Shown: piece after piece, positions 3,697-58,139 of the stretch
Layout: each line of letters starts with the position of its first letter
How positions within the stretch are numbered: the stretch's first letter is position 1
DNA from: Leptothoe kymatousa TAU-MAC 1615
GTDB taxonomy: Bacteria > Cyanobacteriota > Cyanobacteriia > Phormidesmidales > Phormidesmidaceae
NCBI RefSeq assembly: GCF_018739865.1
Contig: NZ_JADOER010000009.1
Location: 269,332-333,331, forward strand
Direction of reading: 5' to 3'
Length of the DNA stretch: 64,000 nucleotides
Position numbers and translations under genes: made by a program
The notes under the pieces: model-generated
The model's database searches: none
Told to the model about the DNA's origin: nothing
What the model saw: the letters and a program-made list of their open reading frames with translations, nothing else

Positions 3697-6600
3697 ATGG
3701 GAGATTTTTACGACGTTTTTATTTCCTATGGGCGGGCGGACAGTAAGGCATTTGTCGTTCAATTGGTTCAGCAGCTAACCGATGCGGGCCATCGGGTTTG
3801 GTGCGACTTTAACGATATTCCCCTGGGGGTGGACTTTCAAAACCAGATCGATAGCGGCATAGAAAAGGCCCACAACTTTGTGTTTGTGATTGCCCCCCAC
3901 GCCGTCAATTCTGCCTATTGTGCCAAGGAGATTGAGCTGGCCTGCCGCTACCAAAAGCGCATTATCCCAATTTTGCATGTAGAACAAATTTCGCGCGATA
4001 CCTGGCTGCAGCGCAACCCCAACGGCACCGAGGCCCAGTGGCAAGACTACCAAGCCAAGGGTCTCCATTCTAGTTTTGCCAATATGCACCCTGGCATTAG
4101 CAAAATCAACTGGGTGTATATGCGCGAAAACGATGATGTGGCAACGGCGCTGGCCGATGTGGGCCATATTGTTCAGCGCCACCGGGACTATGTGGAACAG
4201 CACACCCGGCTACTGGCCAGGGCCCTAGCCTGGCAGCGGCAGCAACAACAAACCGAATTTCTATTGCTGGGAGAAACCCGCCAGGCCGCCGAAACCTGGC
4301 TAAAGCGTCGGTTTGGGGAATCTCAATCCCCCTGTGAGCCCACCGACCTCCACTGCGAGTTTATTACCGAAAGCATCAAAAACGCCCACAACAACATGAC
4401 CCAGGTGTTTTTGGCCTATGCCCAGGCCGATGCGGCGGTGATGCACACCATTCGCCATTCCCTGCAACGGCAGGCCCTGACCGTTTGGACCAACCAAACC
4501 GACATTGCCACCGGGGACGCCTTTAAGCGAGCCGTGGCGCGGGGCATTGAAGAGGCCGATACGCTGGTATATTTGCTGTCCCCCGATTCGCTTAAGTCTC
4601 AATATTGCCAGCAGGAGCTGGACTATGCCATTGCCCTCAACAAGCGGATAGTTCCTGTTTTAGTGCGGCCATTGCCGGGGGCAGTGCCCCATGGTCCCCT
4701 GGGGGAATTGCAGTATATTGACCTGACCGACAATGTGGCACCGGCCGACTACGGTTCAGACGAGAGTGCCTTAATTAAGGCGCTCAAACAGGATGCGGTC
4801 TATTACGACCAGCATAAAACCCTGCTGACAAAGGCCCTAAAATGGAAACGGCAACAGCACAATCCCAGCATTTTGTTGCGGGGCTATGACCTGCGCCAGG
4901 GGGAAGCCTGGTTAAAGACGGCCCTAGGCCGACCGGCCCATGGGGCCACCCAGTACCATCAGGCCTTTATCCAGGCGAGTATCAAACACCCACCGCCCCC
5001 ATCCATCGATGTGTTTATCTCCTATTCCAGTGCCGATGGGGATATTGCCCGCATGGTAAACAACGCATTGCAAAGCCAGGGTAAAACCACCTGGTTCGAT
5101 CAAGAAAGTATTGCCGCAGGGACGGCTAATTTTCAACAAGAGATTTACCGGGGCATTGAAATATCCGACAACTTTTTGTTTATTTTGTCCCCCCGGTCGG
5201 TAAAGTCTCCCTACTGTAAACAGGAGGTGGAGCATGCGGCCCGGTTTAACAAGCGCTTGGTTACCCTGTTGCACCATCCCATCGATACCGCCGATCTCCA
5301 TCCTGAGCTGGCCAAGGTGCAGTGGCTCGATTTTAGTCAGCGGCGGGGGAACTTTACCACCCACTTTAACCAGCTGGTGCGCATTCTCGATACGGATCGG
5401 GACCATGTGCAAAGCCATACCAAATGGCTACAGCGATCTTTGGAATGGCAACAAAAAGACCAAAGCCAGGATTTGTTATTGCGGGGGGCGGAAAGCGCGA
5501 TCGCAACCCAGTGGTTGCACACAACCCACACCCAACAAAAACGCCCCGCCGTTACCCCAGAGCAACGGGCCTTTATCACCGCCAGCCAAACGGCCCTAGA
5601 CGCCGAAGCCCGGCGCGACAAACAACGGGTGCGGGTGTTGCAATCCTTGCTGGCGACGATGAGCGTGCTCGCCGCCATTGCCGTCGTAGCGGGCGGTTTT
5701 GCCTTTCGCCAAAGCAGTCGCCTAAACCTGGACCAAACCGCCGAACGGGTGAGCCGGTCCCTGGCGGTAAAGCCCGTGGAAGGCTTGATCCAAACCTTGG
5801 CACTGGTGGGCAAAAGCCGATCCCAGCTATGGAACATTCGACCCTCCGTGCGTTCTGCTTTGCGCAACGCCATTGGCACCATTACCGAACGCAATCGGTT
5901 AACCGGCCACGATGCCGCAGTGTGGTCGGCGGTGTATGGCCCCGATGGGCAACTGATTGCCAGCGGTGGCTTTGACCATGTAGTACGACTGTGGGATGCC
6001 CAGGGGAATCCGGTGGGCAGTCCCTTCCAGGGGCACACCGATGACATTTGGTCCGTGGCCTTTAGTCCCGATGGGCAAACCCTAGCCAGTGCCAGTTCCG
6101 ATGGCACCGTCAGGCTGTGGGATCTAGAGGGGAACAACCTCGGCGTTTTTCTAACCGAACGCGACAGCCATGTAAAAACAGTGGCCTTTAGCCCCGACGG
6201 TGCCTGGATTGCCAGCGGCGACCAGGGGGGTGCCGTGCGGCTGTGGAACCGCCAGGGAAAGTTAGTCACACCACCGTTTCAGACCGACGGCACCGTGTGG
6301 TCCGTGGCCTTTAGCCCCGATGGCAAACAGATTATTAGCGGTGGAGAAAATGGGCTAGTGTATATTTGGACCGCCCAGGGAAAGCGGGTAAACACCCTGG
6401 AGGGGCACCAAGGGGGCATCCTGGCGGTGGCCGTTAGCCCCGATGGCCAGCTTATTGCCAGCGGCGGCACCGACCAAACAATTCGTCTGTGGAATCGCCA
6501 GGGAAAGTTGTTGCACCAAATAGAAGGCCATAGCGACACGGTGGTCTCCTTAGCCTTTAGCCCCGATGGCCAGTGGCTTATTAGCGGTGCCGACGACAAT

Positions 6601-7698
6601 ACGGTGCGGGTGTGGGACCGGGCCGGGCAGCCGGTGGGGCCAACGCTCATTGGCCATGAATACTATGTGTATTCCGTTGCCTTTAGCCCCGATGGGGAGA
6701 CCATTATTAGCAGTGGTGAGGACGAGACTATTCGGCTCTGGTCGCTGCGGGATGTGTTGCAACGTCGGGCCACTGAGGTGCATAGGGGGCCGGTTAATGC
6801 CATGGCCAGTAATGGCCAAAGCCTGGTGACCGCCGGGGATGACGGCACCATAAAACTGTTGGGTAGCGATGTGGACCCTTTTGTTGGCCATGGCGGTGCG
6901 GTGCTGGCGGTGGACATTAGCCAGGATGGGCGCACCATTGTCAGCGGTGGTGCGGACAAAACAGTGCGGTTCTGGAATGGCCAGGGGCAAACCCTCGCCA
7001 CGGGGGATGCTCACACGGATAGGGTGAATGCCGTGGCCATCCATCCTACCCAGCGGTTGGTGGCCAGTGCCAGTGATGATAAAACGCTGCGGCTGTGGGA
7101 TTTTGATGGCAATTCTGTTGCCAAGGCGGACCACGGCGACGGGGTGAATGCGGTGGTGTTTAGCCCCGATGGCACCCGGTTGGTGAGCGGTGGAGATGAC
7201 CGCACCCTGCGGTTTTGGGATTTGCAGGGGACCCCCATGGGAGATCCGATTGAGGGTCATCGGGATAATATTAATGCCCTGGCCTTTAGCCCCGATGGTG
7301 AGTATATTGTCAGCGCCAGTCGCGATCGCACCCTGCGGTTGTGGACGGGGGACGGCGAACCCGTTGGCACGTCGTTTAATGGCCACCAAAGTGATGTAGT
7401 GGCGGTCACCTTTAGCCCCGATGGTGAGTATATTGTCAGCGCCAGCCGGGACCAAACCCTGCGGCTGTGGGATTTGCAGGGTAATCCCATCGGTGAACCG
7501 TTGACGGGGCACAATGCCACGGCCAGTACGGTGTTGTTTAGTGGCGATGGGCAGTGGATTTTAAGCGCCAACAGCGATGGCTTTTTGCGCCGTTGGGAAG
7601 GGGGAAGTTTGGCAGAGTGGGTGACTTGGGGTTGCGATCGGATTCGTAATCATTCGGCGGCGGCTGGGGAAAAAACGGCTAAGGCTTGCGGATTCTAA
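3697..7698 (+). CDS. Three-TIR, transmembrane, 14-WD40-repeat protein
   Basis: A 1333-residue protein. Three TIR domains begin near residues 5 (YDVFISYGRADS), 233 (TQVFLAYAQADA) and 436 (IDVFISYSSADG). Each keeps the conserved Cys-x-x-Glu of the putative NAD-hydrolase site (YCAKE, YCQQE, YCKQE). A similar helical linker of the form HxxLLxxALxWxRQQ..LLxGxxxxxxxxWL follows each TIR domain. A hydrophobic segment around residues 647-668 is probably membrane-spanning. From ~733 to ~1310 there are 14 WD40 repeats, enough for two seven-bladed propellers. The tail WGCDRIRNH resembles the short C-terminal motif common after such propellers. GGGGGAG precedes the start. The layout (catalytic domain plus repeat sensor) fits a signalling or immune-type receptor; the function is inferred. 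It converges on the ROCO gene, 19 bases away. Confidence 0.93.
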   Translation: MGDFYDVFISYGRADSKAFVVQLVQQLTDAGHRVWCDFNDIPLGVDFQNQIDSGIEKAHNFVFVIAPHAVNSAYCAKEIELACRYQKRIIPILHVEQISRDTWLQRNPNGTEAQWQDYQAKGLHSSFANMHPGISKINWVYMRENDDVATALADVGHIVQRHRDYVEQHTRLLARALAWQRQQQQTEFLLLGETRQAAETWLKRRFGESQSPCEPTDLHCEFITESIKNAHNNMTQVFLAYAQADAAVMHTIRHSLQRQALTVWTNQTDIATGDAFKRAVARGIEEADTLVYLLSPDSLKSQYCQQELDYAIALNKRIVPVLVRPLPGAVPHGPLGELQYIDLTDNVAPADYGSDESALIKALKQDAVYYDQHKTLLTKALKWKRQQHNPSILLRGYDLRQGEAWLKTALGRPAHGATQYHQAFIQASIKHPPPPSIDVFISYSSADGDIARMVNNALQSQGKTTWFDQESIAAGTANFQQEIYRGIEISDNFLFILSPRSVKSPYCKQEVEHAARFNKRLVTLLHHPIDTADLHPELAKVQWLDFSQRRGNFTTHFNQLVRILDTDRDHVQSHTKWLQRSLEWQQKDQSQDLLLRGAESAIATQWLHTTHTQQKRPAVTPEQRAFITASQTALDAEARRDKQRVRVLQSLLATMSVLAAIAVVAGGFAFRQSSRLNLDQTAERVSRSLAVKPVEGLIQTLALVGKSRSQLWNIRPSVRSALRNAIGTITERNRLTGHDAAVWSAVYGPDGQLIASGGFDHVVRLWDAQGNPVGSPFQGHTDDIWSVAFSPDGQTLASASSDGTVRLWDLEGNNLGVFLTERDSHVKTVAFSPDGAWIASGDQGGAVRLWNRQGKLVTPPFQTDGTVWSVAFSPDGKQIISGGENGLVYIWTAQGKRVNTLEGHQGGILAVAVSPDGQLIASGGTDQTIRLWNRQGKLLHQIEGHSDTVVSLAFSPDGQWLISGADDNTVRVWDRAGQPVGPTLIGHEYYVYSVAFSPDGETIISSGEDETIRLWSLRDVLQRRATEVHRGPVNAMASNGQSLVTAGDDGTIKLLGSDVDPFVGHGGAVLAVDISQDGRTIVSGGADKTVRFWNGQGQTLATGDAHTDRVNAVAIHPTQRLVASASDDKTLRLWDFDGNSVAKADHGDGVNAVVFSPDGTRLVSGGDDRTLRFWDLQGTPMGDPIEGHRDNINALAFSPDGEYIVSASRDRTLRLWTGDGEPVGTSFNGHQSDVVAVTFSPDGEYIVSASRDQTLRLWDLQGNPIGEPLTGHNATASTVLFSGDGQWILSANSDGFLRRWEGGSLAEWVTWGCDRIRNHSAAAGEKTAKACGF

Positions 7699-7717: not shown

Positions 7718-10700
7718 TTAGGATGTGGGGTAAATCTCTTTGATGTGTTCTTTGCAAAGCCAGAGCACGTCGCCTTCTGGGGTGGTGGTACGGGTAAGGC
7801 CACCCCAGACTTGTTCGGGGTCTTTTTGTTTTAGGAATTGGTGCAACATGCGCAGGGCGGCACCGCTGATTTTGCTAGGGCGATCACCACGTTCGTCGTC
7901 AATAAAGCTGCGATCCTCATCGTCGAATTTAACTTCTGGTAGTTTATCGATTAAGGATTCGGTAAGGGCCAGGTCATTTTGGATCAGTTCGCTGTAGATG
8001 GGGGCGGATAGATTAATCCAGGGGCCGATGACGGGGGTGACGTATTTGAGAATACCGAAGAGGCGGTTGATGTGGGGCGTCATTACCTTAAGCCACTGCT
8101 TGGGGTTGTCGATGGGGTAGAGACCGCCTGCTTTGACGGGGTGGAGACAGCCGGGATGTTCGCAGTAGAGTTGCAGGTTGATGCGTTGGCAGCCGAGATC
8201 TTTTTGCCAGGGTTTACGGTCGTCGGGACGGAGGACGAAAATGCTGGGGCAGGGGGATTCGAGTTGTTTTTGGACAGTACGAATTTCGCGGATAAGGTCC
8301 CGCTGGACAAGTTCACGGAGTTCTGTAAAGCCCTGAGACATAGACTTTTGCAGAGAATCGATTTTTTCAATTACGGCATTTTGCGTGGTGTAGTGCAAGC
8401 CGAAGAGCAATCGCGTGACTGAAATTGTCTCTAGACACTGCTCACAGTCAATGGTTTCCTTGGGTGGTGTTCGTTCCAGCCGTTTAGTGAGGTTGGCATA
8501 GTCAAACTCATGTTTGCAGTCTTCGTGGAGTGGATCAGGGCAGGGAATTAGCCGGGTAATTTGTAAACCTGGATAGCGCTTAAGGGTGAGTTCAAACCCT
8601 TCTCGCAAGATGCCGAAGAAGCTATGGGGCATTGGTCCACGAACGGTGAGGGTCACATGGTCTGCATTTGTGCGAGTATCTCGAGTAACTCGTAACAGAC
8701 CTAAATGCCTGGGATTACTACGTCCGTCGCCAAATAATACACCAGTTCGCCAGTGGAGATTTTGAGTAAAACGATGCTGACGAGCTATAAACCAGGTCGG
8801 AATACCAGCTAAAATTTCACTGAGCTGATATTTCATTGTAATCTCTTTACAGTTAGGTTCCTCTTTTATTTGTTTCCACAATCCCTGAAAATCAGGTGGT
8901 TCATAATCTAGACGCTCTACTACTAGACTTTTATCTTCTGGATCGTCAGGTATTTTATAAGAGAGATCAAACTGTTCCATCAGTTCAAGAAAATATTCTC
9001 GCAATCCAGGCAAAAGTTGCCTCCATAGCTCATTCATGCATTGACGAGTGAAGATTCCAAAGTTACTAATAACAGCCTCAGCTGAGAGAACTTTGCTGAT
9101 ATATTCTGTAACCCACTGTGGTTTAAGAATCACTAAATTATTAAGACCAGGGTTATCTTGAAAAAATAAAATATCTCCCAACTCATGCATCCAGTTGGCA
9201 AGAATAGGCTGCCCCTCATACGAAACATTACATTTATCCATCGCGGACCAGAACTGTTCAGTTGTAGCCTGCTTGGATTTGATTTGACGAATTTTAGTCG
9301 CAAATGTTAGCCAGGTAGCAGGCCATACTTCTCCCATGAGTGGCAATTCAGCTGCCGTATTAGTAATAGTTTGTTTTAGTGCATCAATCCCAGCACCAGT
9401 CTTGTTACTAATTTCATAAAGGCTAACAATTTGAGGAAATTGTTCTTTTAGTTCTGAGAGAGGGAGATCAGCATCCCGTTCATCTGACCAAGTAGCGACT
9501 AAAATGACCGGAGATTCTGGAGCATTCGCGCGAATTGTTTTGAGCCAATAAATGAGTTTACCTTGTTCATAACCAAGACGAGCATTGAAGGCCAAGAGGA
9601 ATAGAGAACGATTGGTAAGAAAAAATTGATGGGTAGCATGATAAATCTCTTGACCACCAAAATCCCATGTATTTAAAGTCATAAAGACATCTTCTTCGTG
9701 CGGGTGTTTCAGCTTTAATGCGTTTATCTCAATTCCATGAGTCGAAGATTGTTGAACCTCGAAACTTTCACCGCGGAGAGCACGAAGAAGTGATGTTTTA
9801 CCGACTCCTCCTTCTCCTATAACTAACAACTTAGAAATCCACTGACGTTTATCATGAAATTTCTGTGCTCGCATGTAGGCTAAAACAGCCTGTGTCCCCT
9901 GCTCCATTATTTCCGGTGGCGGAAATTGAAGATTAGGATTTCCACTTAGATAAAGTGATGTTAGAGTTTTTAGCTGCCCCAATTCCTTAGGTACCGTGAT
10001 TATCTTGTTCAGGCGAAGATCAATTCGATCTACATTTTTGAGTAATCCTAACTCCTTAGGAACACTTGTTAATCGGTTTGCACTAAGGTCCAACCAAGTA
10101 AGAGTTGTAAGCTGCCCCAATTCTTTCGGAACAGTTCTCAACTGGTTATTTCGAAGCTCAATTCGAGCTATATTCTTAAGTAATCCTAGCTCCTTAGGCA
10201 CATCTGTTAAGTAGTTTGCGCTGAGCTTAAGCTCTTTCAGACTAATGAGTTGTCCTATCTCCGAAGGTATAGTTTGTAGTTTATTATTCCGAAGATCAAT
10301 CTTTTCAAGATTAGCGAGTCTTCCTATTTCTGGGGGTATAGTTTGTAGTTTATTATTCCGAAGATCAATCTCTTCAAGATTAGTTAGTTTGAAAGCTGAC
10401 GGAGGGATCGCATTCAGGTCAAGAAACGCCAGCTGAAGTATATTTGTATAAGAAGCTTCTTCAATTCGCTGTTTTACTAATTCAATTCCTTGTAATACCT
10501 CTTTTGGTCCTTTCTTGAAAGCTTTCTGAGAGGGTGAGACAAGATAAGGATTATTTCTAATATCTAATCGAATTAAATTAGAGAGTTGGCCTAATTCTAC
10601 TGGCAAAATATCTAATTGATTGTTACTAAGGTCTAGCTGGTGTAAATTAAAGAGCTGACCCAATTCTGCTGGTATTGTTATTAGCTGGTTATTACTAAGG

Positions 10701-10981
10701 TCTAACCGAATTAAATTAGAGAGTTGGCCTAATTCTACTGGCAAAGTATCTAATTGATTATTGCTAAGGTCTAGCTGGCGTAAATTAAAGAGCTGACCTA
10801 AAACTTTAGGTACTATCTTTAATTTATTATTACTAAGATTGAGTTGCTTTAAATTAAAAAGTCGTTTGGTAATTAATACTGGAAAAGTCTCTAATTGCAA
10901 ACCTGATAGATCTAAATTTATTGCTTTTGTGTCTAAGGCTTCCTTAATTCGTCGATTTGCTTCAGTTTTTTGAGATTCCAT
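7718..10981 (-). CDS. LRR-Roc-COR (ROCO-family) GTPase
   Basis: A 1087-residue protein. About 13-14 leucine-rich repeats (residues ~20-365) fall in two blocks, split by a helical insert around 150-185. The Roc GTPase follows: P-loop GEGGVGKTS (~388), DFGGQE (~440), and a non-standard guanine-specificity motif TWSDE (~495) in place of NKxD. The COR dimerisation region covers roughly 560-780. The C-terminal ~300 residues, including CEQCLE and YCEHPGC, are not recognised. Bacterial ROCO proteins are GTP-cycled dimers, and some cyanobacteria have many copies. The 5' two thirds of the gene is clearly more AT-rich than the 3' third, suggesting a mosaic origin. It points at the TIR-WD40 gene. Confidence 0.9.
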   Translation of the reverse strand: MESQKTEANRRIKEALDTKAINLDLSGLQLETFPVLITKRLFNLKQLNLSNNKLKIVPKVLGQLFNLRQLDLSNNQLDTLPVELGQLSNLIRLDLSNNQLITIPAELGQLFNLHQLDLSNNQLDILPVELGQLSNLIRLDIRNNPYLVSPSQKAFKKGPKEVLQGIELVKQRIEEASYTNILQLAFLDLNAIPPSAFKLTNLEEIDLRNNKLQTIPPEIGRLANLEKIDLRNNKLQTIPSEIGQLISLKELKLSANYLTDVPKELGLLKNIARIELRNNQLRTVPKELGQLTTLTWLDLSANRLTSVPKELGLLKNVDRIDLRLNKIITVPKELGQLKTLTSLYLSGNPNLQFPPPEIMEQGTQAVLAYMRAQKFHDKRQWISKLLVIGEGGVGKTSLLRALRGESFEVQQSSTHGIEINALKLKHPHEEDVFMTLNTWDFGGQEIYHATHQFFLTNRSLFLLAFNARLGYEQGKLIYWLKTIRANAPESPVILVATWSDERDADLPLSELKEQFPQIVSLYEISNKTGAGIDALKQTITNTAAELPLMGEVWPATWLTFATKIRQIKSKQATTEQFWSAMDKCNVSYEGQPILANWMHELGDILFFQDNPGLNNLVILKPQWVTEYISKVLSAEAVISNFGIFTRQCMNELWRQLLPGLREYFLELMEQFDLSYKIPDDPEDKSLVVERLDYEPPDFQGLWKQIKEEPNCKEITMKYQLSEILAGIPTWFIARQHRFTQNLHWRTGVLFGDGRSNPRHLGLLRVTRDTRTNADHVTLTVRGPMPHSFFGILREGFELTLKRYPGLQITRLIPCPDPLHEDCKHEFDYANLTKRLERTPPKETIDCEQCLETISVTRLLFGLHYTTQNAVIEKIDSLQKSMSQGFTELRELVQRDLIREIRTVQKQLESPCPSIFVLRPDDRKPWQKDLGCQRINLQLYCEHPGCLHPVKAGGLYPIDNPKQWLKVMTPHINRLFGILKYVTPVIGPWINLSAPIYSELIQNDLALTESLIDKLPEVKFDDEDRSFIDDERGDRPSKISGAALRMLHQFLKQKDPEQVWGGLTRTTTPEGDVLWLCKEHIKEIYPTS

Positions 10982-26862: not shown

Positions 26863-29800
26863 CTACAATTCTGTGCCGATGCCATCGCACAATGCCAGAT
26901 CTTCATCGCTAATTTCGACTGGATTATGGGCCACATGATAGCGGACCCAATCGCAACCACGAACAACCAATGAATCTAAGCTTAGAGCCTCTAAGTCCCA
27001 AAGTTTGATGGTGTTGTCACCACTGCCACTGACGAGGGTCTTGCCATCGGGACTGAAGCCCACACTAATGACCCAATCATCATGGCCATTAAGGGTGCGG
27101 ATTTCCTCGCCTGTTTCCACATCCCAGAGTTTGATGGTGTTGCCGCTACTGCCACTGACGAGGGTCTTGCCATCGGGACTGAAGCTCACACTAACGACCC
27201 CATCATCATGGCCATTAAGGGTGCGGATTTCCTCGCCTGTTTCCACATCCCAAAGTTTGATGGTGTTGCCGCCACTGCCACTGACGAGGGTTTTGCCATC
27301 GGGACTGAAGCTCACACTAACGACCCCATCATCATGGCCATTGAGACTGCGGATTTCCTCGCCTGTTTTCACATCCCAGAGTTTGATGGTGGTGTCACTA
27401 CTGCCACTGACGAGGGTCTTGCCATCGGGACTGAAGCCCACACTTCTGACCCGATCATCATGGCCGTTGAGGCTGTGAAGTTCCTCTCTTGTTTCCACAT
27501 CCCAGAGTTTGATGGTGGTGTCCCAACTGCTGACACTGACGAGGGTCTTGCCATCGGGACTGAAGCCCACACTTCTGACCCAATGATCATGGCCGTTGAG
27601 GCTGTGGAGTTCCTCGCCTGTTTCCACATCCCAGAGTTTGATGGTGGTGTCCCAACTGCCACTGACGAGGGTCTTGCCATCGGGACTGAAGCCTACACTC
27701 AGGACCTCAGACTCATGCCCATTGAGGATGCGTATTTCCTCTCCTGTATTCACATCCCAGAGTCTGATAGTGTTGTCACCACTGCCACTAACGAGGGTTT
27801 TACCATCGGGGCTGAAGCCTACACTATGGACAAAAGAATCATGAACATTAAGAGTGCGTATTTCCTCTCCTGTTTCCACATTCCATAATTTGATGGTGCC
27901 GTCACCACTGCCACTGACGAGGGTTTTACCATCGGGGCTAAAGCCCACACTACTAACTCTAGCATCATGCCCATTGAGACTATGGACTTGGTTGCTTTTC
28001 AATAAGACTTGTTGCAGTACATTCAGTCCCTCCGGTTGGATAACCTGATACTTTTGTAAAGCAGTACCAGCCCGAATAGCTTCAGTCCACGCATCCAAAT
28101 CTTTACCTTCATTCAATAGCGATAAAGAAAGCAGACCCGACGACCGCGCCTGATTTAGTGCAGCTTGCTTAATCGCTTGCTTAGCTACTCGCCATTGCCA
28201 AACAGCAACACCCCCAACAGTCATTGCCAACAATAACAACGAAGCCAATCCTCCAATCACCATTCGCTGCCGCTTCGTCTCTGCTGCCTGACCAGTCTCC
28301 AACGCTCCCCGACTTGAGGCTACATACTCCCCCTGCAACACCGTCGGTCTCGGCTCCTTCTCCGCCGCCTGCACTATCCACCGCTGCGCCTCCGTCAGCT
28401 CACTCCCCCGCAGCAGCACCTCTTCTCGCCGCCCCTTCTCATCCCACTCAATCGCCTTCAACAACAACCCAGTGTGATATCGCAAATGCACTGGGTCCGT
28501 ATCCAACGTCCGCAACAACTCCTTAAAGTTCGCCTCAAACTCTCCCTCATTAGCATTAAAATCAGTCCATTGAACCTTTGCCAACTCCGGATGCAGATCT
28601 TTCGCTTCCACCGGACGATGCAACACCGTCACCATCCGCTTATTCAGCTTCGCCGCATACTCCACCTCATCCGCACAATAGGGCGACTTCACCGACCGAG
28701 GCGACAGCACAAACAAAAAGAAATTCGATGTCTCAATCCCTTTATAAATCTCCTGCTGAAAATCCGCCCCCGACGCAATACTCTCCTGATCAAACCAGGT
28801 ACGCTTACGCTGCCGCTGCAATGCATTATTCAACTTCCGCGCAAAGTCCGAATCGGCCCGCGAATAGGAAATAAACACATCCGGCGACACCGCTGCTGTT
28901 TGTTTTTTGCTGGCCTCAATAAACTCCGTCTGAATCTCCGTCGGGCCATTAGTATCCCTAGCCTGGGCAACATCCTGCCATGCCTGGGCATGTTGCAACT
29001 CATAGCCCTGCAACAAAATACACGGGTTCCGCTGCTGCCGCTCCCATTTCAGCGCCTTGGTCAATAAAACCTTGTGCTCATTAAAATACGTCGCATCCTG
29101 CTTCAGCACCCGCAGCAGGTCGTCCTCATCCTTAAGGTAATCTTCCTCGGTCTCGTTATCGGTCAGGTCAATATATTGCAGATTCCTAAAGGCCACCGGA
29201 ATATCCGTCTCATCCACGGTCCCCGCCAGCATAATGATTAACCGCTTATTTAGCTTGATAGCTAAGTCTATTTCATACTGACAATATTTAGACTTCAGCG
29301 AATTGCGGGACATTAAATACAACACATTGTCCGCTTCTTCCACCCCCCGCTTCAGTGCCGCTTCAAAGTCGCTGCCAAATTCAATATCCGATCGATAGGT
29401 CCAAGTGGTAATCCCTGCCCGCATTAGAGTGCGTCTCACCTGATCCGTAGTCTCAGCATCTTCCTCTGCATGGGACAAAAACACCCGGGTCATCAGGTTA
29501 TCGCCGTTTTTGATGCTTTCGGTAATGTACTCGTAGTGCAGGTCCGTCGGCACCACCGGCGGCTGACTCTCTTTAAACCGAATGGCCAACCATGCTTTTG
29601 CGTTTTGTCGATCTTCCCCAGTGAGCAAATAGCGTGTTTGTTTTTGATTACGCTCCCACTCCAGAGCATCCTTCAACAGCATCGTATGCTGATGAACATA
29701 GTCCTTTTCTCGGCTCAGCAGCTCCAGCAGTCCTTCAAAGGAGTCCCCATAGTCGTCGGTGCCCTCTCGAAAATAGACCCAGTTGATCTTGCGAATTGCT

Positions 29801-30195
29801 GGGTGCATATTGGCAAAATGGGAATGCTTACCTGCGGCCTTATAGGCCTCCCACTGGTCCTTGGTGTCTTCTGGATTGCGATACTGCCAGGTGTCGTAGC
29901 TGATCTCCTCCACATGCAGCAGCGGAATAATCCGCTTTCTGTGCTTTAGCGCCTGCTCAATTTCCAGATTGCAGTAGTCTGAGTTCACCGAATGGGGCGA
30001 AATCAGGTACAGAAAGTTATCCGCCTTTTCAATGCCATCATCGATTTGCCTTTGGTAGTCCACCCCCAGCGGAATATCGTTATAGTCAAACCAAACCTTG
30101 TAGCCTAGCGCTGTGAGGCGTTTGCTAAGCTCCTGGGCAAATTGCTTACTATCGGCACGACCATAGGAAATAAACGCATCCTGGAAGGGGTTCAT
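26863..30195 (-). CDS. Three-TIR, transmembrane, 8-WD40-repeat protein
   Basis: A 1110-residue paralogue of the protein at 3697-7698. TIR domains begin near residues 5 (QDAFISYGRADS), 235 (TRVFLSHAEEDA) and 435 (PDVFISYSRADS). Each keeps the Glu after the conserved Cys (YCNLE, YCQYE, YCADE) and is followed by the same helical linker. A hydrophobic stretch around 644-668 is probably membrane-spanning. Eight WD40 repeats from ~733 are nearly identical (VGFSPDGKTLVSGS, TIKLWDVETGEE) and differ mainly at a few loop positions. The C-terminal tail VRGCDWVRYHV..LCDGI is a common cap after such propellers. Likely a receptor-type TIR effector; the trigger and product are unknown. Confidence 0.93.
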   Translation of the reverse strand: MNPFQDAFISYGRADSKQFAQELSKRLTALGYKVWFDYNDIPLGVDYQRQIDDGIEKADNFLYLISPHSVNSDYCNLEIEQALKHRKRIIPLLHVEEISYDTWQYRNPEDTKDQWEAYKAAGKHSHFANMHPAIRKINWVYFREGTDDYGDSFEGLLELLSREKDYVHQHTMLLKDALEWERNQKQTRYLLTGEDRQNAKAWLAIRFKESQPPVVPTDLHYEYITESIKNGDNLMTRVFLSHAEEDAETTDQVRRTLMRAGITTWTYRSDIEFGSDFEAALKRGVEEADNVLYLMSRNSLKSKYCQYEIDLAIKLNKRLIIMLAGTVDETDIPVAFRNLQYIDLTDNETEEDYLKDEDDLLRVLKQDATYFNEHKVLLTKALKWERQQRNPCILLQGYELQHAQAWQDVAQARDTNGPTEIQTEFIEASKKQTAAVSPDVFISYSRADSDFARKLNNALQRQRKRTWFDQESIASGADFQQEIYKGIETSNFFLFVLSPRSVKSPYCADEVEYAAKLNKRMVTVLHRPVEAKDLHPELAKVQWTDFNANEGEFEANFKELLRTLDTDPVHLRYHTGLLLKAIEWDEKGRREEVLLRGSELTEAQRWIVQAAEKEPRPTVLQGEYVASSRGALETGQAAETKRQRMVIGGLASLLLLAMTVGGVAVWQWRVAKQAIKQAALNQARSSGLLSLSLLNEGKDLDAWTEAIRAGTALQKYQVIQPEGLNVLQQVLLKSNQVHSLNGHDARVSSVGFSPDGKTLVSGSGDGTIKLWNVETGEEIRTLNVHDSFVHSVGFSPDGKTLVSGSGDNTIRLWDVNTGEEIRILNGHESEVLSVGFSPDGKTLVSGSWDTTIKLWDVETGEELHSLNGHDHWVRSVGFSPDGKTLVSVSSWDTTIKLWDVETREELHSLNGHDDRVRSVGFSPDGKTLVSGSSDTTIKLWDVKTGEEIRSLNGHDDGVVSVSFSPDGKTLVSGSGGNTIKLWDVETGEEIRTLNGHDDGVVSVSFSPDGKTLVSGSSGNTIKLWDVETGEEIRTLNGHDDWVISVGFSPDGKTLVSGSGDNTIKLWDLEALSLDSLVVRGCDWVRYHVAHNPVEISDEDLALCDGIGTEL
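26995..27990 (-). repeat. Eight tandem 126-base WD40-coding repeats
   Basis: The marker TTTGATGGTG-type boundary recurs near 27004, 27130, 27256, 27382, 27508, 27637, 27763 and 27889, i.e. every 126 bases with one 129-base unit (an extra Ser codon, VSVSSWD). Adjacent units are almost identical at DNA level, including silent positions. Confidence 0.9.
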
Positions 30196-34213: not shown

Positions 34214-34566
34214 GTGAACTCAATCTTTTGCAAGATACAACCAAGCTATTAAACTGCTTGTTTCTGCCCCCAAACCCCCAATTTTGGGGGCTTTGAGTCT
34301 GGCCTCCCCCAGAATTGGGAAGAGGGGGTCTCGATATCTGAAAATTAATTTAGGATCACCTACTTAACTCCGAGTTAGAAAATGGCCCTCCTTCAGCATT
34401 CCTACCCCCTAACTCCGAGTTAGAAAGTGGCCCTCCTTCAGCATTCCTAACCCCTAACTCCGAGTTAGAAAATGGCCCTCCTTCAGCATTCCTACCCCCT
34501 AACACCCACTTCCGAAAATGCTATCTTTAGCTGACAAAAACGTCCCTGTAGTGATGGAGATAACCG
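34214..34566. other. Intergenic region with hairpin repeats and a tandem palindrome array
   Basis: 34265-34330 holds CCCCCAATTTTGGGGG-type hairpins. 34365-34524 holds the 45-base tandem array described separately. No gene. Confidence 0.7.
34365..34524. repeat. Three-and-a-half tandem 45-base units with palindromes, upstream of bicupin
   Basis: Units start at 34365, 34410 and 34455, and a degenerate one at 34500, each exactly 45 bases apart. Each full unit carries the palindrome TAACTCCGAGTTA, extended to CTAACTC-C-GAGTTAG in units 2 and 3, then GAAA(A/G)TGGCCCTCCTTCAGC. The array ends about 40 bases before the bicupin ATG, where repeated regulator sites are often found. Confidence 0.85.
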
Positions 34567-39526: not shown

Positions 39527-40246
39527 GGAACGGCACCAACATAGATATCTAAATATCCAGACACAGCTACGGTGTACCCACAAGTCATCGTAAAATCGCT
39601 TTTGCTGTCGAAGGCCCCCCTAAATCCCCCCAGGATTGGGGAAACCCCAGAACGCCTAATTAGGAAAACGTAGATATTTCCATAAAGGGGGGCCAATGCA
39701 GGAATTTGAGCTTTAGTTCGAGATGTGTATACACGGTAGCCAGACACAGCCATTAGGGGCACTGCATACAATGTCCCTAATGGCTGTGGGAGCAGAACCA
39801 ATGTTTTTATGTGGCCACACAAAATTTCGTTGCTAGGTTAAAGCATAAACTGCTACCCCGATGGCATCCGCAACAGTCTAAAAACCATTCCCATACCCGC
39901 AGCGGCACAGGTTTTACTTCTAACAGATTTTAAAGATCGTTTTAATTTCCTAGGGCCTTAAACCGCTAGGAAATTAAAGATTTTTTGAACTCGTTCCAGG
40001 GGCAATTTTTAGCTCCGTTTTCGAGAATATGCAATTTTTTTACTCCTATCACAGCTGTAAATGGTATTGTCATCATCAGTACTCCGCAAAAAAAAATATC
40101 GGAGTTATTACAGTACTAAAAACAACTTTGTCGTTGCAGATTTGGCAAGCCATTCGCTTTGTACGTTGCTTTATGTCAGTACAAGCGGGTTAGGGGCCAT
40201 TTCAGTTATTTAACGGCGCTGCAATTTTATCCATAGGTTGGCACAT
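39527..40246. other. Long intergenic region with orphan terminator and hairpins
   Basis: It contains a CCCCCCAGGATTGGGG-type hairpin (~39613-39645), a strong terminator-like stem at 39941-39984, and a hairpin ACTCCG/CGGAGT within AGTACT-flanked DNA around 40079-40117. No protein gene supported. A small RNA gene ending at the 39941 stem is possible. Confidence 0.55.
39941..39985 (+). terminator. Orphan intrinsic terminator
   Basis: A perfect 13-bp stem (TTTAATTTCCTAG at 39941-39953; complement at 39966-39978), 12-base loop, then GATTTTTT. It is 415 bases past the endonuclease I stop, which is far for that gene, and 260 bases before the next start. Confidence 0.6.
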
Positions 40247-43200
40247 ATGTCCCAGTACTTTCTTGGGCTGAACCTCAGCCATGAGCGTTCAGCTGCCATC
40301 GTGAAAGATGGTGAGATCTTGGTGGCCATTGAACAAGAACGTCTGGATCGACAAAAATATAGCATTGGCTTTATGCTGCAATCGCCTGGGGTAACAGCGC
40401 GAATGCAGCCTCCCCACGATGCCATTCGCTACTGTTTGGATAGCTGCGGCATTACCCTAAATGATTTAACAGCGGTAACCGCCAATATGCCAGGACATGA
40501 TTTTGCGCCGACAATTATGCGCAATACGCTGCCTGCGGACATTGCCGACCGGGTCTTGGCAATTCCCAGCCACCACCTGGCCCATGCCTATTCAGCCTAT
40601 TGGCCATCGGGTTTTGACGACGCGTTGGTGCTGGTGATCGACGCCACAGGCACCACCCATCAAGACCACCGTACGGAATCTTACACCCTTTACGAGGGCC
40701 ATGGCCATACTCTGTCAACTCTCCACAGCGAAACTGTTGACTCCCATCTCACCGGTCTGTCCACCCTCGGGTTTCTGTACGAATATGTCACCCGCAAAGC
40801 TGGCTTTGTTTCTAAAATGGGCAATACCAATGTTAGCCATGCGGAGGCTGGAAAGCTGATGGGGTTAGCCCCCTTTGGTGGAGAACAGGCTAACTTCCAT
40901 GATTGGATTAAACCCGTGGACAATAGCTATAGCCTGTCCATCTCTCCCTACGACATCTTTTTAGAAATAGCGGCCCTAGAAAAGACCTACGACAACGGCG
41001 AGGGCAAACCCTATTTACGGCCCTATTTGGTAGATTTAGCCTACAAGATTCAGTCGGAGCTGGAAAAGGCACTGAAGCATATTGTTAAACTGGCCATGGA
41101 GCGCACCGGGCTGAAAAAGCTCTGCATCGCTGGCGGAGTGGGGCTAAATTCGGTGGCCAACTACAGACTCTTTAAAGACCTAGGGTTGGACGATATTTTT
41201 ATCTTTCCGGCGGCGAGTGATAGTGGCATTGCGGCTGGGGCCGCCCTATGGGCCTATGGCCAACAGGGGGGTGTTAAGCGGCCGGCATTGACCCAGGCCA
41301 CCCTGGGCCATGGCTATGGGCCACCCCAGGTTAGTCAGGCCCTAGAACAATTTGAAGACCTGATTGAGTTTGAAGAACTAACCCCCGCAGACATGGTGGA
41401 GCGCAGTGCCCAGGCCCTGGCCCAGGGGAATATTGTTGCCCGATTTGAAGGGGGCGCTGAGTATGGTCCCCGAGCCCTGGGGCACCGATCTATTATGGCG
41501 GATCCGACATTTAAGCGGATGCGCGACATTATTAATGCCCGGGTAAAATTCCGCGAGGCATTTCGTCCCTTTGCTCCGGTAATTCCGTTAGAAGCGGTGG
41601 ACCAGGTGTTTGAACTGGATGGAAAATCGCCGTTTATGTTAATGGTGGCCCCGATTAAGCCCGAGATGCAACAACAGATTCCGGCGGTCACCCATGTGGA
41701 CGGCACCGGACGGGTCCAGACGGTAACCGCCGAGCACAATCCTTATTTTCATCAGCTCTGTCATCAGCTGGTGGATCTGCGCCAGGGACCACCCGTATTG
41801 CTGAATACCAGCTTTAATGTGGCGGGACAACCCATTGTGGAAACACCGGCAGAGGCGATCCAAACCTTTTTGAATACGGATATTGACTATCTGGCCATTG
41901 AAAATGTGTGGATTGCGAAAAAGCACGTGCGGGTGCAAAACTATGGAGAACATCTGTCGAAGACGGGCGATGCCGTGGTGCCCCAAGGGTTGCCCCCCAA
42001 CCAGCCCGCCGTTACTGAGCTAATGGCAAAATTGGATCGGGCGCTCTTTTTTGGGAAGTGCGATCGCTGTCCCTGGAGTGACACAGAACTCAAGCAGCTA
42101 TCTAAGCTGGGAGCCCGGTACAAAGAGACCAGCGTTCTCTTCCCCGACTCTCCTGTCATGGGGCCGCTCCATAGCCGAGTCACCCAAGACGTCGTCTGGA
42201 TTTTTGATCCCCTCAACAGCTCTACCCTGGTGAACCTGGCCGAAGAAAGTGGTCTTTCTAAACAACATTTTACGGGAAGTGCCAACCAAAAATCGGAGTT
42301 GAAGGCCCCCGCAAAGGTGAGCGGCCATAGCCTCAGTTCCGCCATTCGCCTGGCCTCTAAAGTAAATGGCGTCCGAGGGCGCCAGCTGCATCAGCCAACC
42401 CAGCCCAGAAGCTACAGCTTTGACCAGGTGAAGCTCCTAATGGCCCTGGTGTCCGACCAACCCGGTTGGCAAGAAAACATTCGCCATCAACTGTGTCTGA
42501 CCCATGGGGAACTGGCCCAACAGATCCAGTGGGCCCACGAACAGCTAAAACACTATGGGGTGAAGCTGGCCCACCGGGAAGCCGCCGAAGATAGCATAGA
42601 CTCTCCTTTGCCCAGCGCCAGTGCCCACACCCTGGCCCCCTTTGAAGCCAGCGACTTTACCCTGCGACATCAGCTAGGGGAACTGCGCCATTGTTTGCAG
42701 CAGGCCGACTATACCCTGACAACAATTTGCCAAAAACTAGATGTGGAATCGTTGCAGTCCATTGAACCCACACGGCTGCACTATTACGATCGTTTTCGCC
42801 TAGGCCATAGCCAGCTAGACGATCTGATTAGACTATTTCTGTTGCGGGTGGCCTTACCCCAAACTCGCCTACAGGAGATTTTAGGCCCATCGCTAACCCA
42901 GCTACTCATAGGGTTAGGGCTGCTGATTCAACGGGGGGAACAATGGTCGTCACGCATTGACCTATTTTGTGTGGAGGGATTGTATATCGCCACGGACCAC
43001 CGGTATATGCTGCTGTCAGAAGATAGCATGGACGAAAGTCCGGTGATGTACATCGGAGCCGACAGCCAGGGGCTGGTGTATACGGCGCCCCGCCATTCTG
43101 TTGCTGCGATTCTAGACCTGTGCTGTGGCAGCGGCGTCCAAGGCCTAGTGGCCAGCCGCTATGGCCAGCAAATCACATCGGTCGATCTCAACCCCCGGGC

Positions 43201-44188
43201 GATTCGGTTTTCCCGATTCAATGCCCAGCTCAATGATATTCGCAATATTCAGTTTCACCAGGGCAGTTTATATCAGCCGGTGGCGGGGCAAACCTTCGAC
43301 ACAATTTTGGCCAACCCTCCCTTTGTGCCCAGCCCCAGTCGAGACCTTGGGTTTCGCGATGGGGGCGCCAATGGAGAAGAGATCTTAGCCGCCATTATCC
43401 GTGACAGTGCTAGGCACCTAAAGCCCCAGGGGCAGGTGTTTATTGTCACAGACCTGGTGGATGTTCAACAATATCAAGCCAAGCTAAACCAGTGGTGGGG
43501 TGGGGGCAAGGCCCATCAGCTAGTGCTGTGTACGGCGGATCGCGACGATGTGCTGTTCTCGGTGCCCCACAGCCATGCCCCCTTTGGCCAAAGTTTAGAG
43601 GAGTACAATACTGAACTGGAAAGGTGGCTAAACAACTTCCATGGGGCAGGTTTGCAGGCCGTAAACTTTGGCTACATCCTAATTCAACAACAGTCTCAGC
43701 AGCCATCGGCGTCCTATTTCTGTCGCACCATCCATAACCCCACCCAGGGAATTTACGATTTTGTGGCAGGCTATTTCCACATGCGTCAGCTATTGGCATC
43801 CCCTAGCCGAGAGGATTGTTATTTATCTCTCTTGCCAAACCTGAGGTTCCGCATTGAGTCGGGTCTGGGGGACACTCAGCAACACATTGAGCTATTTGTG
43901 CCAGACGATCCGTATTTTACGACCTATCAAATCAACGAAGACCTATACGAAACCCTGCAAACCATCCAGCGACTAAGGCCCCAATGGTCCCGGTTTGTGA
44001 CACCGGCCAACCAGGCCCAGCTAGAAGACCTGATCTGCAAGGGATTGTTGCAGCTAAGTGTGCAACGGCCCCAATCCCCCGAGCGTCAGAATTTGGAAAA
44101 ACTCTTTTCCCAGTCTGGGGAAACGGCGGGCATTGTGGAGCTGAGAACAAAAACAACGCCCACCTGTTTGTCGGCCTATTTGGGCTAG
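40247..44188 (+). CDS. Carbamoyltransferase-methyltransferase fusion
   Basis: 1313 residues from ATG 40247 (a TTG at 40238 is less likely). Residues 1-~570 are a NodU/CmcH-type O-carbamoyltransferase: LGLNLSHERSAAIV, the metal-site motif SHHLAHAYSAY (~108), GGVGLNSVANY (~296), YGPRALGHRSIM (~405), FRPFAPVIP. After a ~330-residue region not assigned to a known family, residues ~940-1100 are a class I SAM methyltransferase with DLCCGSGVQGLVASRYG (motif I, ~957) and the catalytic NPPF (~1023), as in N-methyltransferases of the HemK/RlmG type. The product would be a carbamoylated and methylated metabolite, which is inference. It is not adjacent to the NRPS operon. Confidence 0.9.
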   Translation: MSQYFLGLNLSHERSAAIVKDGEILVAIEQERLDRQKYSIGFMLQSPGVTARMQPPHDAIRYCLDSCGITLNDLTAVTANMPGHDFAPTIMRNTLPADIADRVLAIPSHHLAHAYSAYWPSGFDDALVLVIDATGTTHQDHRTESYTLYEGHGHTLSTLHSETVDSHLTGLSTLGFLYEYVTRKAGFVSKMGNTNVSHAEAGKLMGLAPFGGEQANFHDWIKPVDNSYSLSISPYDIFLEIAALEKTYDNGEGKPYLRPYLVDLAYKIQSELEKALKHIVKLAMERTGLKKLCIAGGVGLNSVANYRLFKDLGLDDIFIFPAASDSGIAAGAALWAYGQQGGVKRPALTQATLGHGYGPPQVSQALEQFEDLIEFEELTPADMVERSAQALAQGNIVARFEGGAEYGPRALGHRSIMADPTFKRMRDIINARVKFREAFRPFAPVIPLEAVDQVFELDGKSPFMLMVAPIKPEMQQQIPAVTHVDGTGRVQTVTAEHNPYFHQLCHQLVDLRQGPPVLLNTSFNVAGQPIVETPAEAIQTFLNTDIDYLAIENVWIAKKHVRVQNYGEHLSKTGDAVVPQGLPPNQPAVTELMAKLDRALFFGKCDRCPWSDTELKQLSKLGARYKETSVLFPDSPVMGPLHSRVTQDVVWIFDPLNSSTLVNLAEESGLSKQHFTGSANQKSELKAPAKVSGHSLSSAIRLASKVNGVRGRQLHQPTQPRSYSFDQVKLLMALVSDQPGWQENIRHQLCLTHGELAQQIQWAHEQLKHYGVKLAHREAAEDSIDSPLPSASAHTLAPFEASDFTLRHQLGELRHCLQQADYTLTTICQKLDVESLQSIEPTRLHYYDRFRLGHSQLDDLIRLFLLRVALPQTRLQEILGPSLTQLLIGLGLLIQRGEQWSSRIDLFCVEGLYIATDHRYMLLSEDSMDESPVMYIGADSQGLVYTAPRHSVAAILDLCCGSGVQGLVASRYGQQITSVDLNPRAIRFSRFNAQLNDIRNIQFHQGSLYQPVAGQTFDTILANPPFVPSPSRDLGFRDGGANGEEILAAIIRDSARHLKPQGQVFIVTDLVDVQQYQAKLNQWWGGGKAHQLVLCTADRDDVLFSVPHSHAPFGQSLEEYNTELERWLNNFHGAGLQAVNFGYILIQQQSQQPSASYFCRTIHNPTQGIYDFVAGYFHMRQLLASPSREDCYLSLLPNLRFRIESGLGDTQQHIELFVPDDPYFTTYQINEDLYETLQTIQRLRPQWSRFVTPANQAQLEDLICKGLLQLSVQRPQSPERQNLEKLFSQSGETAGIVELRTKTTPTCLSAYLG

Positions 44189-51832: not shown

Positions 51833-51837
51833 GGAAA

Positions 51838-58061: not shown

Positions 58062-58139
58062 ATTTTTATTTTTCTACTAGCAATTAGAATATCCTTAAAA
58101 TTTAGTCTCATCTCTATTGGTTATAACAACTTACCAGTG

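What the first reader, a model, noticed from the sequence alone, without database searches (positions are those of the whole stretch)
26863..30195. TIR-WD40 receptor whose WD40 blades look under recent amplification and site-restricted diversification
Eight WD40 units are almost identical at DNA level over 126 bases, including silent positions. The coding differences cluster: NGHDARVSS, NVHDSFVHS, NGHESEVLS, NGHDHWVRS, NGHDDRVRS, NGHDDGVVS, NGHDDWVIS, and again at SGSGDG, SGSWDT, SGSSDT, SGSGGN. These are the loop positions on one face of a propeller. The fungal HNWD incompatibility proteins (for example HET-E) show the same pattern: concerted evolution of repeats plus hypervariable surface positions for recognition. 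Coupled to three TIR domains and a membrane segment, this suggests a recognition receptor with a shuffling sensor.
Basis: partly seen in the sequence, partly recalled or inferred. Interest (0 to 1): 0.78.

Follow-up and report, generated by a model that had tools for sequence, protein, structure and literature searches.

The report
Membrane TIR receptor with hypervariable propeller
A cyanobacterial membrane protein carries three TIR (immune or cell-death signalling) domains and, probably on the outer side of the membrane, a ring of copied WD40 blades whose one face varies at the same positions that fungi diversify in their self/non-self receptors.

Summary
Gene A (26863-30195, minus; 1110 aa) has three TIR domains, one transmembrane helix, eight 42-aa WD40 units and a two-cysteine cap. 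The units are not almost identical (DNA 70-97%, mean 81%). Variation is nevertheless site-restricted: codons 7, 9, 25, 27, those selected in fungal HNWD genes, are as variable as a set in 10 of 111,930 four-column choices. There pN is 0.53, framework pS 0.29 and pN 0.03. Adjacent silent sites are not elevated in A: selection rather than regional hypermutation. The model is an 8-bladed ring with these sites in loops of one face. Relatives mostly have 14 blades (24 of 39), homogenised gene by gene; four Microcystis nSTAND1 homologues have 5, 8, 12 and 10+4. New: in 33 relatives the propeller is nearly cysteine-free, tails have two cysteines and charges favour N-inside; no-TM WD40 proteins of the same genomes have 2% cysteine. 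The variable face is thus probably extracytoplasmic, a Toll-like topology. Ligand, NADase activity and defence role are inferred; gene A has no strain-level data, and some repetitive arrays lack the excess.

The parts
26863..30195 (-). gene A: TIR-TIR-TIR-TM-WD40(8)-cap, 1110 aa
29908..30174 (-). TIR domain 1; Glu78 in the YCNLE motif (column E in 38 of 38 homologues aligned)
   Evidence: lines up with a Glu of 7uwg
29143..29484 (-). TIR domain 2; Glu308 (E in 37 of 38)
28513..28878 (-). TIR domain 3; Glu510 (E in 37 of 38); best PDB sequence match Cat1
28195..28263 (-). single hydrophobic (transmembrane) segment, about aa 645-667
   Evidence: Kyte-Doolittle 2.13; family
27979..28194 (-). linker shared with nSTAND1-WD40 proteins
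   Evidence: 39 identities in a 110-column local alignment with L063
26968..27978 (-). eight WD40 units (aa 740-1076), modelled as an 8-bladed propeller; hypervariable codons 6, 7, 9, 25, 27 of each unit
26866..26997 (-). C-terminal cap, aa 1067-1110, with Cys1081 and Cys1103
3697..7698 (+). paralogue gene B: TIRx3-TM-WD40 with 14 diverged blades (median identity 0.45), 53% identical over TIR-part residues 1-667

Best explanation
Gene A is a single-pass membrane receptor. Three TIR domains sit in the cytoplasm; an 8-bladed WD40 propeller with a two-cysteine cap sits on the far side of the membrane (periplasm or thylakoid lumen). About five residues per blade, in the d-a and b-c loops of one face, form a combinatorial binding surface. 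Tandem near-repeat DNA lets blades be copied, deleted and recombined, which homogenises the framework, while selection keeps the contact residues different. Ligand binding would cluster receptors and bring the TIRs together into an NAD-cleaving assembly that stops or kills the cell. Shown: architecture and site-restricted excess of amino-acid change. Well supported, from relatives: gene-wise homogenisation, variable blade number, outward topology. Inferred: ligand recognition, TIR NADase activity, defence or self/non-self role.
For: Site pattern: 3 of 52,360 (columns 1-35) and 10 of 111,930 sets (all 42 columns). In A pN at codons 7, 9, 25, 27 is 0.526, framework pS 0.288, framework pN 0.031; codon-column bootstrap ratio 1.81, 95% interval 1.14-3.27. 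Silent sites beside these codons 14/128 against 119/506 elsewhere in A. At least two of the four sites are among the five most variable of 35 columns in 17 of 17 repetitive arrays. Nearest blade by framework DNA lies in the same gene for 8 of 8 A blades and 205 of 230 over the 17 arrays; in three diverged orthologue pairs it is the orthologous gene for 78 of 78. Blade numbers 12, 8, 5 and 10+4 in four Microcystis homologues. Topology. 8-blade model. TIR glutamates kept. No NACHT or NB-ARC match in aa 1-739.
Against: No strain of this species was available, so turnover of A itself is untested. Silent divergence in A is moderate (0.29), so the amplification is not very recent. Column 42 is as variable as the predicted columns 25 and 27. 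Several repetitive arrays show no excess: five of the 17 have pN below pS (pS 0.57-0.72, near saturation), L109 0.94, and five of six repetitive arrays of the control set do not exceed 1, among them L231 1.00 at pS 0.24 and L238 0.90 at pS 0.33, the latter with other sites variable. Flanking silent sites exceed the others in 6 of 17 arrays, none of them with low silent divergence. A's own charges around the helix are equal, 3 and 3. Eight blades is off the family norm of 14 and may be an assembly collapse or a contracted allele. PADLOC and NCBIfam match only at TIR-domain level.
Confidence: 0.6

Rival explanations
1. Same receptor, but the propeller is cytoplasmic and senses internal invaders as fungal HNWD NLRs do; the hydrophobic segment only tethers it.
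For: The fungal NLRs with WD40 sensors are intracellular (PMC12222747 passages); charges around A's helix are equal.
Against: Propeller cysteine 1/7970 aa in 14 TM-type against 149/7287 in 15 no-TM WD40 frames of the same eight genomes; two tail cysteines in 33 of 33 chosen family members; charge bias to the N side in 29, equal in 4, reverse in 0 of 33.
Confidence: 0.2
2. Neutral recent amplification of one blade (the Pereira and Lupas cycle); the variable sites are simply the least constrained loop positions.
For: The same positions are also among the most variable in 19 diverged arrays; five of 17 arrays, L109 and five of six control arrays have pN at these sites no higher than pS.
Against: In all seven of the 17 arrays with pS below 0.4, A included, amino-acid change at these codons exceeds the silent rate (raw ratios 1.35-5.4); L177 in the same genome has a ratio of 14 with framework pN 0. 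Lack of constraint alone should not exceed the silent rate.
Confidence: 0.15
3. Gene A is a contracted or collapsed copy: a 14-blade double propeller that lost blades, or an assembly artefact, and may be inactive.
For: 24 of 39 TIR3-type proteins have 14 blade matches; fungal alleles need about 10-11 repeats (PMC1805685 and PMC12222747 passages); another array of this genome has an N run inside it; Illumina assemblies fail on such arrays (PMC12222747 abstract).
Against: Open frame and cap are intact; eight blades model as a ring like Tako8, rmsd 1.4; one Microcystis homologue in a single-contig genome also has 8.
Confidence: 0.3
4. A dedicated mutator rewrites the contact codons, rather than selection on ordinary mutation.
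For: Two- and three-base codon differences beside unchanged codons, e.g. codon 25 in L177; same-residue codons at these sites differ more than neighbouring silent sites in A, L063, L065 and L106.
Against: Silent sites adjacent to the codons are not elevated in the low-divergence arrays; changes are not confined to adenines as in DGRs; one RVT_1 match was found in the 75%-complete genome, a 557-aa frame on another contig. Repeated amino-acid turnover can explain the same-residue codon differences.
Confidence: 0.05

Closest known systems
Fungal HNWD/NWD NLRs (HET-D, HET-E)
   Same: tandem 42-aa WD40 repeats homogenised within genes, diversifying change at codons 7, 9, 25, 27, variable repeat number in related genes
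   Different: TIR x3 instead of HET-NACHT, no NTPase found, a transmembrane helix, probable extracytoplasmic sensor, 8 repeats, ligand unknown
WRAP-type highly repetitive beta-propellers of cyanobacteria (Dunin-Horkawicz 2014 as described in PMC9218822)
   Same: recently amplified WD40 blades in putative bacterial immunity proteins, disrupted copies
   Different: the parts read here report amplification, not a fixed set of diversified contact sites; WRAP is on a STAND protein next to a TIR-STAND gene
nSTAND1-TM-WD40 proteins (e.g. Microcystis L063/L168)
   Same: similar linker, helix, repetitive propeller and two-cysteine cap
   Different: effector is an nSTAND1 NTPase, not three TIRs
TIR proteins Cat1 (9mud) and 7uwg (AbTir, name and NADase activity recalled)
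   Same: TIR domain and the glutamate position
   Different: A has three TIRs in one chain and a built-in sensor; activity untested
Animal Toll-like receptors (recalled)
   Same: TIR inside, repeat sensor outside, one membrane pass
   Different: opposite N-to-C order, WD40 instead of LRR; analogy only

Membership tests
HNWD/NWD incompatibility NLR | NACHT NTPase and (for HNWD) HET effector | tested here: not met
   Pfam scan of aa 1-739 at E up to 1 lists three TIR families and three weak sub-cut-off matches, no NACHT, NB-ARC or HET
HNWD/NWD incompatibility NLR | diversifying change at repeat codons 7, 9, 25, 27 | tested here: met
   (counting method, not a codon model)
HNWD/NWD incompatibility NLR | concerted evolution of repeats within genes | tested here: met
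   paralogues L106/L109, TIR part 83% identical, different array consensus
HNWD/NWD incompatibility NLR | repeat-number polymorphism between isolates | tested here: inconclusive
   seen only between Microcystis species genomes, in nSTAND1 homologues; no data for gene A
HNWD/NWD incompatibility NLR | self/non-self recognition function | not testable with these tools
   needs experiment
highly repetitive beta-propeller (Pereira and Lupas) | median blade identity above 60% | tested here: met
   0.80 on aligned columns
TIR NADase | catalytic glutamate position | tested here: met
   E in 38, 37 and 37 of 38 homologues; its catalytic role is recalled
TIR NADase | NAD cleavage | not testable with these tools
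   needs assay
Thoeris and other catalogued TIR defence systems | NCBIfam curated cut-off reached | tested here: not met
   ThcB4 101 of 220 bits, Retron_TIR 92 of 600 bits; best PADLOC stretches all lie in the TIR half
DGR-diversified sensor | reverse transcriptase near the target | tested here: not met
   one RVT_1 match in the genome, on contig C18, none on the window's contig C11; template repeat not searched for
membrane receptor with outward propeller | N-inside single pass, propeller outside | tested here: inconclusive
   indirect family evidence from charge and cysteine; no direct test

The most novel reading that the evidence does not exclude
Cyanobacteria carry a repertoire of Toll-topology membrane receptors (TIR x3 or nSTAND1 inside, WD40 propeller outside) whose outward binding face is diversified by blade recombination plus selection fast enough that related populations carry different specificities: a surface-facing, prokaryotic counterpart of the fungal HET-D/HET-E repertoire without a dedicated mutator.
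Probability: 0.35. Interest if true: 0.85.

Novelty: new variant of a known kind. Interest (0 to 1): 0.66.

Why it matters
If right, the same four contact codons are diversified in fungal NLRs and in bacterial TIR or nSTAND receptors, and bacteria have membrane receptors with an outward, evolvable sensor. It gives a testable list of contact residues and a simple topology test, and it shows how a receptor repertoire could be renewed in bacteria without a diversity-generating retroelement.

Tried and rejected
Near-identity of the units: rejected. Exchange of blades between loci of the genome: not seen; the best other blade matches in the genome are 72-76% identical DNA. DGR: rejected on codon pattern. 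Diverged arrays (gene B, the G004/G005 pairs) served only as controls. Known defence system: no match over a curated cut-off in NCBIfam.

Selections and rows dropped. Seventeen repetitive arrays were taken at median identity 0.58 or more; L059 (same contig as L126), L075 and L072 (six blades each; L072 below the line) were left out. L109 was missed by my anchor filter and added, where it weakens the case; L169, L173 and L177 were added there too. One search covers columns 1-35 only; one search covers all 42 and is less extreme. The 33 proteins were chosen by me: near-duplicates (L112, L114, L116, L059), contig-cut genes (L101, L124, L127, L128) and L060, L061, L064, L065 were left out; in one of the 33 (L066) the segment scores 1.32, below 1.6. 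In one search, 37 frames from 40 fetched loci had five or more blades (three loci gave none); the 8 with hydrophobicity 1.26-1.59 are in neither group: seven have cysteine-rich propellers (11-15 each), one has 6. Two of 15 no-TM propellers are cysteine-free; 10 of 14 TM-type tails have exactly two cysteines; charges there are N over C in 11, the reverse in 1. Several loci were cut at an end. Domains of the no-TM proteins were not identified. Charge and cysteine counts are my own script, not a topology program.

Papers: PMC9218822 outline, passages and whole Discussion; PMC1805685, PMC7159879, PMC12222747, PMC4986451, PMC10907252, PMC6805158 passages only (with abstracts where a passage lay there); all others search listings only. 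That I found no report of these diversified sites in bacterial arrays rests on ten searches of an open-access library; Dunin-Horkawicz 2014 itself was not read.

Full report
What is there. The frame at 26863-30195 (minus) encodes 1110 aa. Pfam gives TIR_2 three times (269 bits) and eight WD40 stretches; the first 739 aa alone give only TIR families over cut-off and no NACHT, NB-ARC or HET. One strongly hydrophobic segment, from about aa 645, separates the two halves. The window lies in a 4.07-Mb, 75% complete genome in 18 contigs. That it is a cyanobacterium is inferred: G038, placed in the same class, holds the contig that is named Cyanothece sp. SIO2G6. The genome has 26 TIR_2 matches, among them three in gene B at 3697-7698 of the window.

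The observation. The eight units were cut in one register (L1 N2 G3 H4 ... V8 ... D26). Pairwise DNA identity averages 81.3%, range 69.8-96.8; protein identity 76.2%. So the near-identity claim is too strong. The clustering claim holds. In Podospora, codons 7, 9, 25 and 27 of the repeat are under strong positive selection, around conserved codons 8 and 26 (PMC1805685 passage). Later work classifies repeats by positions 10, 11, 12, 14, 30, 32, 39 of another register, which by my count are 5, 6, 7, 9, 25, 27, 34 here (PMC12222747 passage). With the four codons fixed beforehand, 3 of 52,360 four-column sets over columns 1-35 and 10 of 111,930 over all 42 columns reach the observed entropy. Column 42 is also variable (third of 42; sixth when the diverged last unit is left out).

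Selection or relaxed constraint. In A the proportion of amino-acid-changing differences at the four codons is 0.526, the silent proportion in the framework 0.288 and the changing proportion in the framework 0.031; bootstrap over codon columns gives a ratio of 1.81 (1.14-3.27), at or below 1 in 0.5% of draws. Seventeen repetitive arrays were compared, most from cyanobacteria, with one Poribacteria and one Fischerbacteria locus. Twelve of 17 have a raw ratio above 1, including all seven with silent divergence below 0.4; the five below 1 have silent divergence of 0.57-0.72, where counts saturate. At least two of the four sites are in the top five of 35 columns in 17 of 17. Four arrays added later give 14.2 (L177), 2.89 (L169), 1.84 (L173) and 0.94 (L109). 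Results against: of six repetitive arrays in the control set only L232 (1.34) exceeds 1; L231 is 1.00 and L238 0.90 at low silent divergence, the latter with mostly other columns variable; L225, L229 and L219 are 0.88, 0.62 and 0.64. So the excess is common, not universal, and not an automatic property of repeats.

Not regional mutation. Silent differences at codons 8, 10, 24, 26, 28, beside the hypervariable ones, are fewer than elsewhere in A (14/128 against 119/506) and in L063 (11/330 against 98/1176); pooled over 17 arrays they are 0.31 against 0.33, and they are higher than elsewhere in 6 of 17, all with high silent divergence. A second array of the same genome, L177, shows the pattern at its freshest: five blades whose aligned framework has pN 0 and pS 0.02, differing at codons 7, 9 and 25. 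Its first blade also differs at position 2, outside the aligned part, and a sixth blade lies beyond an 85-N run.

Turnover. For each blade I asked where its nearest framework neighbour lies: in the same gene for 8 of 8 in A and 205 of 230 over the 17 arrays; for three diverged orthologue pairs of two congeneric genomes it is the orthologous gene for 78 of 78. The nearest relatives of A's TIR part (L057, 72%; L126, 74% over residues 377-725) have 14 blades with a different consensus. Two paralogues of genome G049 with 83% identical TIR parts have arrays of different consensus. In Microcystis, eight of 12 genomes hold a homologue of the nSTAND1 form at E 1e-200 or better (nSTAND1). Four have arrays that can be counted: 12, 8, 5, and 10+4 blades split by a stop; the first 580 residues are 90-95% identical to L168. 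In the other four the contig ends inside the array. Assembly error cannot be excluded, least so for the single-contig genome (8 blades). Gene A itself could not be tested.

Structure. An AlphaFold2 model of aa 690-1110 on six sequences has mean pLDDT 84, about 88-98 per ten-residue block over the blades, and 32 strands, which is eight blades of four. It matches the designed 8-bladed Tako8 at 1.4 A over about 330 columns, so a closed ring is likely. Site 7 falls in the d-a loop, site 9 at the start of strand a, 25 and 27 in the b-c turn; by propeller topology these share one face. No coordinates were available to measure this. Tail and linker are low confidence.

Topology. In 33 proteins of the family that I chose (TIR x3 and nSTAND1 forms) a hydrophobic segment lies before the propeller (32 of 33 at 1.6 or more). 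Lys plus Arg is higher on its N side in 29, equal in 4 (A among them), never lower. Cysteine makes 0.03% of the propellers against 0.96% of the parts before the segment, and each tail has two cysteines. WD40 loci from eight genomes gave a control: 14 frames with such a segment have 1 cysteine in 7970 propeller residues; 15 frames without it have 149 in 7287; 8 in between were set aside. Cysteine avoidance plus a paired-cysteine cap is what an oxidising, extracytoplasmic site would give. I therefore place TIRs inside and propeller outside. This is inference from composition.

Mechanism and comparison. The TIR glutamate is kept in 38, 37 and 37 of 38 homologues, and the only two PDB sequences matched at E 1e-6 are Cat1 and 7uwg, both TIR NADases as I recall. 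The likeliest working is ligand binding outside, clustering, TIR assembly, NAD loss. It works like HET-E in its sensor and like a Toll receptor in its topology, but is a member of neither: it lacks NACHT/HET and an LRR ectodomain. Literature seen here describes recurrent blade amplification and a suspected immune role in cyanobacteria (PMC9218822) but, in the parts I read, not these diversified sites or the outward topology.

Noticed in passing
window 3697-7698 (+): Paralogue TIRx3-TM-WD40 with 14 diverged blades, 53% identical to gene A over TIR-part residues 1-667.
   Followed up: partly
window 7718-10981 (-): LRR-Roc-COR protein (ROCO type) beside gene B, with 69-bp repeats at 10549-10839.
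   Followed up: no
L177 (G000:C18:19500-26500): Second repetitive WD40 array in the same genome on an nSTAND-like gene: blades almost identical in DNA except at codons 7, 9, 25; an 85-N run lies inside the array.
   Followed up: partly
L172 (G394:C3:1-4500): Microcystis nSTAND1-WD40 homologue with an in-frame stop inside the array (10 + 4 blades).
   Followed up: partly
L238 (G004:C3:326000-331000): Repetitive blade array followed by a 321-aa cysteine-containing C-terminal part; its variable columns are mostly not the HNWD ones, so the sensor may be elsewhere.
   Followed up: no
window 50207-63932 (-) and 40238-44188 (+): NRPS genes (condensation, adenylation, carrier, TubC docking, thioesterase) with an ABC transporter, and a carbamoyltransferase-methyltransferase fusion.
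   Followed up: no
window 34365-34503: Three copies of a 45-bp tandem repeat containing ACTCCGAGT.
   Followed up: no
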